Shown: piece by piece, positions 22,580 to 38,100 of the stretch | Layout: each line of letters opens with the position of its first letter | How positions within the stretch are numbered: the first letter of the stretch is position 1 | NCBI RefSeq assembly: GCF_017311165.1 | Contig: NZ_CP062973.1 | Span: 1,612,001-1,676,000 of the forward strand | Source: Psychroflexus sp. ALD_RP9 | GTDB lineage: Bacteria; Bacteroidota; Bacteroidia; Flavobacteriales; Flavobacteriaceae | DNA: 64,000 nt | Direction of reading: 5' to 3' | Notes under the pieces: generated by a model | What the model was told of the DNA's origin: nothing | Database searches by the model: none | The model's input: only the letters and a program-made list of their open reading frames with translations | Made by a program: the position numbers and the translations under genes

Positions 22580-23626
22580 TTATTTGTTTTTAATTTTTTC
22601 AATCATCTGTTCATATTTTTTAATTATCGAATTTATTTTATGTTGAGTTTTTCTACTAATTTCATCTTGTTTTGATTGTGGAGCGATTGTACCAGACCAT
22701 TCATCATTCAATTCTACAGTAACGTTCCCATACATGGCTAATATACTTCTTAATAAAACCCTTTGCGCAACCACCTCTCCCTCTTCAGCTTTGCCAGCAT
22801 TTCTTGTTTTTGTTATTTCTAATAACATTTCATTAATCAGTATCATTTGCTCTAAAAGTTTTTTTCGACTTCTATGAATGGCTTCAATCTCTATCAACAA
22901 TTGTATAACTTGATCTTGGTTTCTTTTTAATTCAGCGACATAACTAATTTCGAAAGCATCTACAAAAATTTTGGCGTCTTTATCTAGTCTTACTGCTTCA
23001 TCATACATAAATGTTATTACTTCTTCTGTAAAAAAATTATCATCTTTGAAATCTTTTAAAGTATCATCTTCCGGAGTATGACCTATGGAAACTAAATTAT
23101 TTTTTGTTCCATCCCAATTCTCAGGATCATGTACTAGATATATATTTCTATCTCCATCGTCTCTAACATCCAAAATATTTCCATTTTCATCAATAAATGT
23201 TGATGCAAGCTCTTCAGGTGCGTGAGAAAATAAGCCTGTTGGATCTACAAAATTTATTGGATTATTATAGCAGTATTGGTATGGGTTAATTGAAGGTACT
23301 ATTTCGGTTAAGGGATCTATATTCATCCACCTTCCAAGTGAAGCATCATAATTCCGCGCTCCAAAATCCAACCATTCTAAGCCAAGCTCGTCGTTTTCTT
23401 CTTTGCCATTGTAACCGTACGGGTAATGCTCGCCGTTGACCACATTATTATACCCTTTATGTTTCAGACCAAAGGGATAGTAGTTTATGCGTTTTTTTTC
23501 TTCGGACGCACTTTTTTCAGAGTGTACCAACTCCAAAAAATTAAAAAAATCGGTATCGAGTTTCTTGCATCCCATTGAGCCACTAATATACGGATTGGTA
23601 TTAATTCCCTCGCAACGCCAACCCAA
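22580..23626 (-). pseudogene. displaced RHS tail (core end plus tip) cut off at YYPFG
   Basis: From 23482 down to 22580 the frame is the end of an RHS-B gene: YYPFGLKHKGYNNVVNG, the core motif DFGARNYDASLGRW, NFVDPTG, then a tip of about 220 residues that is mostly helical and Lys/Glu-rich with a likely coiled coil (about residues 205-345 of this frame). Upstream of YYPFG the sequence switches at 23483 to the end of the mobile unit, which contributes about 47 unrelated residues from a TTG codon just after a stop. The start is therefore not credible, and the tail is probably silent. Its missing N-terminal part is best explained by RHS-B3 (36131-39646). Confidence 0.75.
23468..23482. other. 15-bp core, left copy (putative att site)
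   Basis: ACCAAAGGGATAGTA, reading GG-TAT-CCC-TTT context as YYPFG on the minus strand. The same 15 bp occurs at 29792-29806 and 36116-36130, spaced exactly 6324 bp. To its left is the displaced tail; to its right is the recombinase end of unit 1. Related sequences lie in RHS-B1 (1910-1924) and RHS-B2 (13212-13226). Confidence 0.7.
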
Positions 23627-23788
23627 TTATTTTTATCAAAACATCCCTTGTCTTGGTGTTGCTCCCTTTCCTTGCTTGGGCTTCCGCTCCTTTTGGCCAG
23701 CAACACTTTTTTGATGTTTAATGATTGGTTTTATCGGTAAAAAAGAGTTGCCAAAAAGGCCAGAGCAAAAGCCCTTTCCAAAGCTATG

Positions 23789-23852
23789 TTTACATAACGG
23801 TCTGTTATAGTAACATTCATTTGATTTCTGTACTATAACGCCATTATGTAAA
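23789..23852. repeat. inverted repeat 1 of the element end
   Basis: The arms are TTTACATAACGG...GTTATAGTA and TACTATAACGCC..TTATGTAAA around an 18-base loop. The outer arm matches that of the inverted repeat at 24206. Confidence 0.6.
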
Positions 23853-23952
23853 ATATCCGACTGATGCCTTTGCGCTCGGTTCTGAACTCGGATTGATATT
23901 TATGTTATTGATTTAAAAGATTGCGTCCGACTAACGCCCTGCGGTTGTTTCA

Positions 23953-24012
23953 TTTTAAAAGCTGATGCAACTCCAACGCTTTATTCCGCCTCTGTTACAT
24001 CAACTTTTAAAA
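23953..24012. repeat. inverted repeat 2 of the element end
   Basis: The arms are TTTTAAAAGCTGATGCAA (23953-23970) and TTACATCAACTTTTAAAA (23995-24012), with two G-T type differences. A further CGTTTTAAAA follows near 24031. Confidence 0.6.
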
Positions 24013-24205
24013 CGTTTGAAGCGGAACAGACGTTTTAAAAAGATGGAGATTTACAAGCCCCGAACTTCGTTTTTGGCAATAACCTTAATCAATCTTCAGC
24101 TTTTTAAAATGATAGCCACTTATGCGGCGATTGAGCATAATAAATTAACTTTCGTAGTGCGCTGGCAGCAGCGTTGGGCTTTCAGCGTGGGCGATGTCGG
24201 CAATT

Positions 24206-34731: not shown

Positions 34732-34732
34732 C

Positions 34733-34759
34733 AAAAAAACCTCCTCGTTAAAGGTGGTT
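34733..34759 (-). terminator. terminator of the RHS-B3 operon
   Basis: This is the copy of 28409-28435: hairpin at 34738-34759 with a T-run on the minus strand after the lipoprotein gene. Confidence 0.65.
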
Positions 34760-34791
34760 TCAATCTATATCAAATTTTATTAAAATTATTC

Positions 34792-35169
34792 TTACTTCCT
34801 TTTCAAAATCACATTGTCGAGCTTCAACTTATTTTTGTCTTTTACTTTAATTACAAACTCTCGTTGATTCATATAACCATTTGATAGTTTCTCGGCTATA
34901 CTTTCATTATCAGAACATTTCAAAAGCAAAGTATCTGCTGTATGCTTCCAAACGCCTTCACATTTGGGATTAAAATCGTGTCCTCTTATACTCAAAATAA
35001 ACACACTATCTTCTTTCAGCTCTAAATTATATTGAGTATTTGAGCCTTGAATTTGCCCTTTTGACAAACCATAAAAACTACCTATTAAATCATCATCACT
35101 AACATTTTTGTATGTAGAACATCCAATACAAAAAATCAGTAATACTAATATTAAAATCCTTATTCTCAT
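34792..35169 (-). CDS. lipoprotein, immunity candidate of RHS-B3
   Basis: The protein is identical to 28468-28845: signal sequence, lipobox FCIGC and a beta-rich body. It starts 4 bp after the RHS-B3 stop, in the operon of the full-length toxin, so this copy is the one likely to be expressed with the active metallopeptidase-like tip. Confidence 0.65.
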   Translation of the reverse strand: MRIRILILVLLIFCIGCSTYKNVSDDDLIGSFYGLSKGQIQGSNTQYNLELKEDSVFILSIRGHDFNPKCEGVWKHTADTLLLKCSDNESIAEKLSNGYMNQREFVIKVKDKNKLKLDNVILKRK

Positions 35170-35173
35170 AGCA

Positions 35174-38100
35174 TTATTTTATTTTGGTGTAAATGGTAGG
35201 CACTATACTTTTTAAAGTAGCATTTGCAGGTAATGTTTGTAATGTACTTTTTAACTGTGGGTAAGCCTTTATCAAATCGTTACGTGTTGAATTAATATTT
35301 ACAGGACTTATTCCTGTATTGGCTGTTCCTCCTTGTTTATATGGTTGATTTCCTGTTGCTGGGTCTGTTACTCCCTGTACCCAACTTGGGGTTATCTGAC
35401 TTTGAGAATTAAGACCACCAACACTTGAAGGGTCATAAGCCCATTGCGCTTTATAACCTGCCACTTCATCATAAACATCTTGAGCCAGTGTATTACCAGT
35501 AGATGAATCAAAAGCTATATCGCCTGTTTCAAATTGTCCTGCGTGTGTTGTTTCGTGTGTAAACAATGCTGTACCGCTATAGCTGATAACAATTTCATTA
35601 GTAGAAGTATCTAACTTAACACCGTTTTGTGCTGCTCCAGAATCTAAACTATAAACTTGTTTACTCGATTCTAAAACACCTAAATTGGAAACAGCATCAT
35701 TAAGACCATTAACCCTATCTTGCATATTTCCAATACGACTGGCAAGTTTTTTGGCACTCCATCCTTTTTCAGCAGCTTTAGCATTCAAACCATCAATTTT
35801 ACCTTGAAGCTTATCTCTTTGAGCTATGATATTTTGTTTTTGCTTATCAAACTCTTTCTGGCTTCCTGGTGCTATTTGCTTACCATCAGGGTCTATAAAG
35901 ATTATCGGATTATTTCCAACAAAACCGTATGGCGTTATATCTTGATACTTTTCCGCTAATGGGTCAACATTAAACCACCTACCAAGAGCAGTATCGTAAT
36001 TTCTTGCTCCGAAGTCGTGCCAATTTAAACCAAGTTCCTCTTGGTTCTCTTTCCCTTGATAATCATAAGGATGATGCGTTCCATTCACCACATTATTGTA
36101 ACCTTTGTGAAGTCCACCAAAGGGATAGTAATTGTTCTCTTCAACAATTTCAAGACTACCATTGTTGTCTTTATAGGACAATCTAATATTCCCTAAATGG
36201 TCTTTATATTGATAGACATACTCAAAGCCACCTTGGTTATCGGGTTGTAGGTAGCCTTCTGGGTGAGAGAAGAATTTAAGCTGAGGGCTGTTGACGCCGG
36301 AATATTCATAGATAAACCCATTGTCATATTGGGTATGTGTAATAGTCCCGAGATTTGCGGTATCATCTTGTAAAAAAGTACCTGTATTGACGATTTTCTT
36401 TAATTTAACGCCTGTAGCATCGTAAATGTAACTAATTTCTCTGTTTTGATAGCCTGAAGTATTAAAAATAACTTTAGTAGGTAAATTTAAGTGATTGTAG
36501 TCAATATGTGTAATAGCTTTGTTTTTATCATGAGTCATATTGCCATTTACATCGTAGGTGTAATCATAAGCTGCTTTGTGAGAGCCATCCTTAAAACCTT
36601 CATCATCTGCTGTATCGTTTACGGCTTTTAATTGATTGGAGTTAGGTTGGTAAGTATAATCTAATTGGTCAATGATGCCTATGCTGTGGTCTTGCTTAGC
36701 CCCATAACGTCTTAAACCCATAATATTGCCATTATAATCATAAGTAATATTGCTAAGGCTGAAGTTTTCTAGTTCACCATCAAAGAGACCAGTCATGGCA
36801 TGCGGTGTTAAATAATCAGCTGCTTTAATACGGTTAAGGGCATCATAGTGGTAGGCGTAGCTCCGTTTTTGGTTATGGGTATTTTGGCTTCGCCAATGGG
36901 TTTCAGAGATGTTGCCATTGTACAAAGCTGTTGTAGCATTATCTTCGGGATTATTGTAATTTAATTTAAAGGCAAAGAGCTGGTCTGGGTTGGGGCTATC
37001 AACATCATTAATGCTTTTTAGCCAGCCTCTAATATTATAACTGTAATCTATTTCTTGTAGACCATTGGTGTTTTGGTAATTTGTATTACTGCTGTCTTGT
37101 CCACCAACTTTTTTACTGATGAGTTGCCCGAGTTCATCATAGTGGTTAAAGACAATGAGTTCCTCACCTTGTTGATTAATGTTTTGAGTTTGCTTGAGCA
37201 GTCGTCCAGCGTGGTCGTAAGTAAATTTATCAACAATAGTGATGTTGGTTGGGTTCAAGCCATTTTTATCATGTGTTGTTGTGGTTTCAAGTACTTCACC
37301 AATAAAGTTGAGCTTAGAGTGGGTTTTAGTTTCAGAGTTCAAGTATTCGTTAATAGAATGGGTATAAATAGCTCTGGCTTTGTCATCATATTTAGTGAGG
37401 CTTGTAATCCATTGGTCTGTACCTAAAACGCGCACATGGCCACCAGTTGCTAAAGTTTTGGTATTGGTGGTAAAGTTACCATTGTTAAGGTTACTGGAAT
37501 AAATAGAGCTGGCTTCAGCTTGTAGACCTCTAAGGTCAAAGTTGTAGTCATCGTAATAGTTAACGGTGTAAATCTCTAAATGTTCAATATTATTGCTAAA
37601 CAAAGCGGTGTTCGTATAGTCAATTTCTAGCTGTCCACTAGCGATTAAAGCTTGTCTAGGATGGCGAGATTCGTATAAGTTTGTGTTGTGATAACTGAGT
37701 TGTTGCCAAAACTCACGCCCCATATGTCTGATGAAAGAACATTTACCAGTATAGGCCACTCTACCAAAAGCATCATATTTGGTAAAGAGCCATTGGTGGT
37801 TTTGTCTTAGCTTGGCATCTTGGGTTAAGACAGGACGGTTAAGTTTATCATAAACGATGTATTCCCAGCCTTTACCCGGTATTTTTTTCTTAACAAGGTT
37901 ATTGCGATTATCATAACGATAAATATACCCTAAACCATCAATCAAGCTTTGTTTTACTTTTTGGGGATATCTAATAATAGGCTGTATTTGATAAGGCGGT
38001 TGGTTAAAAATACCTACCTGCCTAAAGTCTTGGGTTTGAACTTGTACATGATTATTAACTAACTTAAAAACCGCATTTGGTCCATCCATATGTCCTAAGA

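What the first reader, a model, noticed from the sequence alone, without database searches (positions are those of the whole stretch)
23468..36130. Integrative element that swaps the toxin tip of an RHS gene
Seen: a unit of two tyrosine recombinases, a P-loop ATPase, an XRE regulator, a lipoprotein and an RHS C-terminal part ends exactly at a 15-bp sequence inside the YYPFG codons of the RHS core. The same recombinase-side end abuts two different RHS tails, so the boundary is real. The unit's RHS part is in frame with the resident RHS-B3 body. Inference: the element integrates into RHS genes, replaces the toxin tip, brings the matching immunity gene and pushes the old tip and immunity pair downstream as silent cargo. 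Known Rhs tip exchange is thought to rely on homologous recombination; a dedicated recombinase module riding with the tip is not something I know to be described.
Basis: partly seen in the sequence, partly recalled or inferred. Interest (0 to 1): 0.95.

Follow-up and report, generated by a model that had tools for sequence, protein, structure and literature searches.

The report
Self-mobile element swaps toxin tips
A small mobile DNA element inserts itself at one exact, conserved spot inside a bacterial toxin gene, giving the toxin a new business end plus its likely antidote and pushing the old end aside; close and distant relatives appear to do the same in many bacteria, including E. coli, which offers an enzyme-driven answer to how such toxins change their tips.

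Summary
The finding is real and larger than reported. A 6,324-bp unit (RHS tip, candidate immunity lipoprotein, XRE regulator, helicase-like ATPase, two tyrosine recombinases, ~1 kb non-coding end) stands twice in tandem without a mismatch, bounded by the codons YYPFG. Loci fetched by ATPase similarity alone repeat the layout: of 94 complete modules, an RHS core on the same strand follows in 42 of 48 and precedes in 45 of 50 with enough flank. One tandem locus places strand exchange within TTTGG of the core. Some members use other RHS motifs. Distant relatives (CHC2/Toprim primase-helicase plus XerC-like recombinase) sit at VENN in CdiA-like genes and at DPIG in Rhs; in E. coli, natural occupied and uninterrupted alleles show precise insertion with the old tip displaced. 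A circular 11,289-bp Lonsdalea record looks like a free circle. Ten literature searches found no description; Jackson 2009 writes that no integrase was known with Rhs, Ruhe 2016 had suggested site-specific recombination at cdi loci. No circle or empty site was shown for the window's own strain.

The parts
36131..39646 (-). RHS-B3 body (DUF6443 N-terminus), the target gene that now runs in frame into tip 1
   Evidence: ORF 35174-39646; Pfam DUF6443; 96.3% identical to B1 body over 3,495 nt
36116..36130 (-). left junction core TACTATCCCTTTGGT = YYPFG (body side)
35174..36115 (-). tip 1 (unit copy 1): rest of RHS core domain plus variable C-terminus with an HETTH motif (peptidase-like by motif, recalled)
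   Evidence: (TIGR03696); no Pfam hit
34792..35169 (-). 125-aa putative lipoprotein, candidate immunity protein (copy 1)
   Evidence: family scans on copy 2; role inferred from position
34396..34731 (+). XRE/HTH_3 regulator on the opposite strand (copy 1)
   Evidence: family scans on copy 2
32713..34242 (-). AAA+ helicase-like ATPase, 509 aa (copy 1)
31691..32626 (-). tyrosine recombinase TR_A, full catalytic set (copy 1)
30817..31704 (-). tyrosine recombinase TR_B, lacks the first catalytic arginine (copy 1)
29807..30816 (-). non-coding element end, closing with AAAAAAAACGCATAAAC (copy 1)
29792..29806 (-). middle core (element end joined to its own tip)
28850..29791 (-). tip 1 (copy 2)
28468..28845 (-). 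candidate immunity lipoprotein (copy 2)
28072..28407 (+). XRE regulator (copy 2)
26389..27918 (-). helicase-like ATPase (copy 2)
25367..26302 (-). TR_A (copy 2)
24493..25380 (-). TR_B (copy 2)
23483..24492 (-). non-coding element end (copy 2)
23468..23482 (-). right junction core (element end joined to displaced tip 2)
22580..23467 (-). displaced tip 2, not joined to an RHS body
21842..22573 (-). 243-aa protein with weak Rce1-like match, candidate displaced immunity gene
   Evidence: below cut-off; role inferred
1010..5455 (-). RHS-B1, uninterrupted paralogue; core at 1910-1924
12327..16790 (-). RHS-B2, uninterrupted paralogue; core at 13212-13226

Best explanation
The unit is an integrative mobile element whose cargo is the C-terminal tip of an RHS toxin with its candidate immunity gene. 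TR_A (XerD-like, with TR_B as partner) recombines the core of a circular form with the same conserved codons in a resident RHS gene, strand exchange lying within TTTGG. The resident body is thereby fused in frame to the element's tip, and the former tip and immunity gene end up behind the element, cut off from the body. Recombination with an already occupied gene gives tandem copies or stacks of different tips; recombination between cores could shed units and bring an old tip back. The helicase-like ATPase probably serves maintenance or replication of the free circle, and the XRE protein probably represses the operon. Shown by sequence: unit, core, in-frame fusion, displacement, recurrence; for distant relatives also occupied and uninterrupted alleles. 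Inferred: the catalytic steps, the circle of this element, the roles of ATPase, TR_B, XRE and immunity protein, and tip reversal.
For: Exact 6,324-bp tandem units between identical cores. Modules found by ATPase similarity alone: 94 complete; same-strand RHS core downstream in 42 of 48 and upstream in 45 of 50 with enough flank; opposite-strand cores within 8 kb: 0 upstream, 1 downstream. Crossover bracket in L045: left vs middle core differ at bases 6 and 9, middle vs right at base 15. Element end with AAACGC in 21 of 37 distinct ends and 0 of 52 body sides. Of 35 whole draft contigs among L060-L131, six start exactly at base 10 of the core and three end exactly at base 14. Bodies B1/B3 96.3% identical to the core, then 58.7%. 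Variable tip parts unrelated in 27 of 32 element pairs whose ATPases are at least 85% identical. TR_A catalytic residues conserved in 84 of 84. Distant relatives: CdiA occupied (L183) vs uninterrupted (L186): 296 of 300 nt before VENN match on the left junction, 300 of 300 after it on the right; E. coli Rhs L187 vs L188: 99.7% over 3,976 nt on the left, 100% over 5,996 nt on the right. Circular 11,289-bp record with two element-end/DPIG junctions.
Against: No reads, circle or uninterrupted allele for the window's strain or its closest subfamily. The allele pairs come from distant relatives (recombinase 25-28%, ATPase 27% identical) with one recombinase and extra primase domains; in some E. coli loci the primase, recombinase, cdiA or rhs gene is annotated as broken. 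Misses: six downstream (L040r, L077, L078, L092, L107, L110; L077 has a core 3.7 kb away), five upstream (L050, L053, L058, L059, L070). Of 13 genomes fetched, three (G390, G351, G394; the last with an ATPase fragment only) showed no RHS core and several showed it on one side only or weakly. Leptospira plasmid relative without a toxin tip. Of 49 element-end cores 29 have an in-frame stop within 15 codons upstream, but 9 are open for 60 codons or more; seven of these nine appear to use another target site. Of 62 body-side cores 11 lack a long open frame upstream. The control is weak: with the same 1.5-kb flank the module's TR_A loci showed no core either, only the TR_B loci did. Tandem copies in drafts may be graph artefacts, though closed plasmid records show them too.
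Confidence: 0.92

Rival explanations
1. RecA-type homologous recombination between RHS core sequences displaced the tip and duplicated the unit; the recombinase genes are passengers (model of Jackson 2009 and Koskiniemi 2014).
For: Recombination over 522 bp of 95% identity is proposed with evidence for Salmonella rhs, and Jackson 2009 proposed homologous recombination with circular intermediates. The identical or near-identical modules with different tips in L157, L161 and L121 probably need homologous exchange within the module.
Against: Body and element end share only the short core: 7 of the 20 nt next to it match in the window. Junctions fall on the same bases in many genomes, and modules collected by ATPase similarity sit at RHS cores.
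Confidence: 0.05
2. The tandem unit in the window is an assembly artefact or a plain tandem duplication, and the element is an old, inactive island.
For: Exact copies can come from assembly-graph loops; no reads are at hand.
Against: The right junction with a different tip does not depend on the second copy; closed plasmid records show the same tandem form; the genes of both copies are open.
Confidence: 0.04
3. The module is an ordinary island or plasmid-derived element whose integrase merely prefers RHS genes as a safe harbour; tip replacement is the repair of the target's 3' end, as phages do in icd (recalled), not its business.
For: A Leptospira plasmid relative has primase-helicase and recombinase next to an AAA ATPase (ParA-like, my reading) and a ParB-domain gene, without a toxin tip: the module may derive from a replicon.
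Against: The cargo is usually a different toxin tip plus a likely immunity gene, and arrays of different tips exist. A simple 3'-end repair would conserve the old sequence.
Confidence: 0.2

Closest known systems
Rhs C-terminal displacement (Jackson 2009, PMC2935791; passages seen)
   Same: Old tips are displaced into strings behind the intact gene; a circular intermediate was proposed.
   Different: [quoted passage not shown] here each complete unit carries one and inserts at fixed codons.
Orphan Rhs tip activation in Salmonella (Koskiniemi 2014, PMC3967940; passages seen)
   Same: Orphan tip fused to the main rhs gene.
   Different: Proposed route is homologous recombination over 522 bp; 'integrase' does not occur in the text held.
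CDI orphan arrays with integrase genes (Ruhe 2016, PMC4927057; passages seen)
   Same: Notes integrase genes among orphan toxin/immunity pairs and suggests site-specific recombination at cdi loci.
   Different: In the passages seen: no element, boundary, core or mechanism defined.
Integron gene cassettes (recalled; compared in Kirchberger 2017, PMC5361080, passages seen)
   Same: Newest cassette first, older ones pushed back.
   Different: Here complete units carry their own recombinase; integron-integrase models score far below cut-off.
rAID arrays (PMC12247911; passages seen)
   Same: Tyrosine recombinase beside arrays of immunity genes in Bacteroidales.
   Different: Orphan immunity genes; no insertion into a toxin gene in the passages seen.
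Burkholderia bcpAIOB megacircle (PMC6350997; abstract seen)
   Same: Mobile circle with CDI genes.
   Different: ~210-kb composite transposon with IS elements at its ends, carrying the whole locus; no tip exchange in the abstract.
Shufflon, and phages in icd (recalled)
   Same: Tyrosine recombinase changes the C-terminal end of a protein.
   Different: Shufflons invert resident segments; icd phages restore nearly the same protein.
Gamma-mobile-trio islands (recalled; weak GmtY match of TR_A)
   Same: Mobile islands with effector cargo.
   Different: TR_A scores 46 against a cut-off of 340 bits; insertion into a toxin's own codons is not recalled for them.

Membership tests
Tyrosine recombinase (TR_A) | R...H-x-x-R...H...Y catalytic residues | tested here: met
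   R169, H269, R272, H295, Y304 in 84 of 84 distinct sequences (numbers of the aligned frame); XerD structure match E 2.8e-30
Tyrosine recombinase (TR_B) | complete catalytic set | tested here: not met
   first arginine absent in 88 of 90 sequences (R in L069_125 and L049r_4181), first histidine kept in only 10; R246 in 84, H268 in 83, Y277 in 88; fold family matched
MCM-like AAA+ helicase (ATPase) | AAA+ helicase fold with C-terminal winged helix | tested here: inconclusive
   [not shown]
CHC2/Toprim primase-helicase | CHC2 zinc finger and Toprim domain | tested here: not met
   absent in P0003 although it aligns with the C-terminal half of such a protein, 27%, E 7e-45
Integron | IntI integrase acting on a cassette array | tested here: not met
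   TR_A 93.6 bits, TR_B 29.5 bits against a cut-off of 265; attC sites not searched
Tn554 family | one long and one short recombinase, often with TnpC | tested here: not met
   recombinases are 295 and 311 aa; the long ones of related elements have 611-828 aa
RIT element | three adjacent recombinases | tested here: not met
   two per unit
Integrative conjugative element | conjugation genes | tested here: not met
   none of the unit's scanned proteins has a conjugation family hit
Site-specific integrative element | recombinase, fixed core at both ends, circular form | tested here: inconclusive
   first two met; circle not shown for this element, only a relative's circular record
Primase/XerC tip elements of E. 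coli Rhs and CdiA | HTH opposite, helicase, recombinase, tip and immunity gene, insertion at a conserved toxin motif | tested here: met
   same order; homologous recombinase and helicase; differs in second recombinase and missing primase domains

The most novel reading that the evidence does not exclude
A cross-phylum superfamily of recombinase-helicase elements is the general machine of tip displacement in Rhs and CDI toxins. The motifs long used to mark where tips begin (VENN in CdiA, DPxG in Rhs, YYPFG in Bacteroidota RHS) stay sharp because they are the attachment sites of these elements, and orphan-tip arrays are stacks of past insertions that can be reshuffled.
Probability: 0.5. Interest if true: 0.97.

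Novelty: new variant of a known kind. Interest (0 to 1): 0.93.

Why it matters
How polymorphic toxins exchange their tips, and why old tips pile up behind the gene, has been discussed since at least 2009 with homologous recombination as the usual answer. Here is an encoded, site-specific route that carries the new tip and its likely antidote together, is found in Bacteroidota and Pseudomonadota, and is testable in harmless strains with reporter genes. It may also explain the sharp VENN and DPxG tip boundaries and arrays of orphan tips.

Tried and rejected
Integron, Tn554, RIT and ICE membership: tested, not met. Phage origin: no ATPase relative in 50,697 phage records; in IMG/VR 41 stretches matched the patterns, none encoded a relative. 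Structured RNA: no Rfam hit at gathering score in window 20000-40000. Defence families: only generic HTH matches of the XRE protein. A second recombination site between immunity gene and module, to explain identical modules with different tips (L157, L161, L121): the boundaries lie near inverted repeats or terminators but share no sequence that I could name; left open. Circular contigs in drafts: L070 (62 bp) and L073 (12 bp) have identical ends among 35 contigs tested (that list held L045 and missed L087). Known structures for the ATPase by sequence: none convincing. Lonsdalea chromosome target not searched. DNA-site modelling of the recombinase arms not done.
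Full report
WHAT IS THERE. The window holds two copies of a 6,324-bp unit in tandem with no mismatch. Read on the minus strand: RHS-B3 body, core, tip 1, 125-aa lipoprotein, [XRE on the other strand], ATPase, TR_A, TR_B, ~1 kb non-coding, core; then all again, then core and an unrelated tip 2 with a 243-aa protein gene behind it. 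The core is TACTATCCCTTTGGT = YYPFG, and the RHS-associated core domain (TIGR03696) begins at these codons. The body runs in frame into tip 1; tip 2 has no body.

THE SAME BOUNDARY ELSEWHERE. I examined 20 stretches from 14 of the 19 genomes and the 72 loci returned; five of these repeat contigs already held and were dropped before the counts. Of 107 ATPase matches 94 have both recombinases, and 80 of these 94 an opposite XRE gene. A same-strand RHS core lies within 3.5 kb downstream in 42 of 48 modules with that much sequence, and within 5.5 kb upstream in 45 of 50. Cores on the other strand within 8 kb: 0 upstream, 1 downstream. Tandem copies and near-identical species count separately here and are not independent. 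Misses are listed in the Against line. Control: five other tyrosine-recombinase loci of the same genome had no RHS core within 1.5 kb, but with that flank the module's TR_A loci had none either, only the TR_B loci did, so this control is weak; the strand bias is the better one.

THE CROSSOVER. In tandem loci, left and middle cores share the tip but differ upstream, middle and right share the element end but differ in tip. L045: TACTACCCTTTTGGT, TACTATCCATTTGGT, TACTATCCATTTGGG; so exchange lies between bases 9 and 15, in TTTGG. In L063, L065, L079 and L088 left and middle differ only at bases 2 to 9, which agrees. Of 35 whole draft contigs among L060-L131 six start exactly at base 10 of the core and three end exactly at base 14, as expected if a tip or an element end is joined to more than one partner; tandem copies could also cause this. 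In 10 of 11 tandem loci compared the units were identical over the stretch held.

OTHER TARGETS. The repeat boundary of L085 and L086 lies at a YDxNGNL-like motif about 125 codons before YYPFG, that of L105 and L129 at a YTGNYVY-like motif 60-67 codons before it. From their open frames alone L127 looks like the first and L108 and L087 like the second kind. These are RHS sequences entered in frame. L172 joins before NHLGN, L181 at YGFNGKE.

CARGO. Among 73 distinct elements the variable tip parts are unrelated (no blastp hit at E 1e-3) in 27 of 32 pairs with ATPase identity of at least 85%. In L157, L121 and L161 near-identical modules carry different tips. One contig of G098 (Flavivirga aquatica SK-16 by the matching contig length) holds a row of modules with different tips. 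Of 10 tips scanned 4 match Pfam toxin or effector families (TreTu, HNH, CdiA_C, Peptidase_M91), 6 match none, tip 1 and tip 2 of the window among them. In the window B1 and B3 bodies are 96.3% identical over 3,495 nt up to the core and 58.7% just after.

PROTEINS. TR_A has its catalytic residues in 84 of 84 sequences. In TR_B the first catalytic arginine is absent in 88 of 90 sequences and the first histidine in most, so TR_B is probably a partner that does not cleave by itself. The ATPase model (pLDDT 84.5) resembles MCM helicases and aligns with the C-terminal half of a CHC2/Toprim primase-helicase.

DISTANT RELATIVES. tblastn of the ATPase hit 27 plasmid records; I fetched 11, of which 10 sit at or carry polymorphic toxin genes (RHS, CdiA/FHA type, FG-GAP with RHS core, or tips only) and one Leptospira plasmid does not. 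Of the 27, 13 are Leptospira, so 10 of 11 is not a fair sample. In Enterobacter sp. JBIWA003 the tandem unit starts at the VENN codons of a CdiA-like gene. In E. coli 59 of 5,426 genomes hold relatives of that primase/recombinase DNA, 203 places, all chromosomal; only 4 genomes cover at least 80% of the query. L183 has such an element in cdiA (annotated as frameshifted) between two VENN sites 7,782 bp apart; L186 has the same body and the displaced tip uninterrupted: 296 of 300 nt upstream match the left side, 300 of 300 downstream the right side, the other sides are near chance. The displaced-tip query matched in 44 of 5,426 genomes, 35 with at least 80% of it; 15 of the 25 rows shown lie in genes annotated cdiA. 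For Rhs, L187 (occupied) and L188 (river-water strain, uninterrupted) match up to the DPIG codons on the left (99.7% over 3,976 nt) and from there 100% over 5,996 nt on the right; L185 and L189 form a second pair. The insertion in L187 holds two tips and a primase gene annotated as frameshifted, so it may be more than one event and is not intact. L174, a circular 11,289-bp record, holds two joints of an E. coli-like element end with GACCCGATAGGG and no annotated RHS body, as a free circle should.

LITERATURE. Ten searches of an open-access library listed no paper that I could recognise as a description. [quoted passage not shown] Kirchberger 2017: no evidence that effector-immunity insertion is facilitated by an integrase. 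Zhang 2012, passages seen: tips exchanged by recombination with cassettes, XerC/D noted beside polyimmunity loci. Ruhe 2016 noted integrase genes in CDI orphan arrays and suggested site-specific recombination: a hint in print that I count against a claim of full novelty. Most subscription papers and preprints were not searched.

VERDICT. A site-specific, self-mobile tip-swapping element; strongly supported by sequence, not yet by experiment. I rate it a new variant of a known kind: integrative elements are known, this job and family were not found described.

Noticed in passing
window 39658-43187, minus strand: The gene upstream of RHS-B3 is split into 237- and 928-aa frames, while the frames upstream of B1 and B2 are open at 1,278 and 1,284 aa.
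   Followed up: partly
L157 5347/12632, L161 9984/16149, L121 1618/9646: Nearly identical recombinase modules carry unrelated tips in one genome; the switch lies next to inverted repeats or a terminator on the tip side of the module.
   Followed up: partly
L184, L185, L187: E. coli rhs loci hold these elements, in rows in L184 and L185, each with a SymE-type gene, some genes broken; ISEc1 copies lie among them in L184 and L185.
   Followed up: partly
L173, L177, L183 after the xerC gene: Enterobacter and E. coli CdiA elements carry a DinJ/RelE-type toxin-antitoxin pair behind the recombinase, perhaps an addiction module.
   Followed up: no
L182 7684-14390: A Leptospira plasmid has the same kind of primase-helicase and a tyrosine recombinase next to an AAA ATPase and a ParB-domain gene and no toxin tip: a possible replicon ancestor.
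   Followed up: no
L166 1-12075: A module follows a 2,119-aa frame with an AHH nuclease end and no RHS core found: perhaps another target type.
   Followed up: partly
L158 3377/11911: Tandem 8.5-kb units (99.9% identical over 8,095 nt) in a single-contig genome; the two frames scanned match no Pfam family.
   Followed up: partly
L069_125 and L049r_4181: The only two of 90 TR_B-like proteins with the first catalytic arginine.
   Followed up: no
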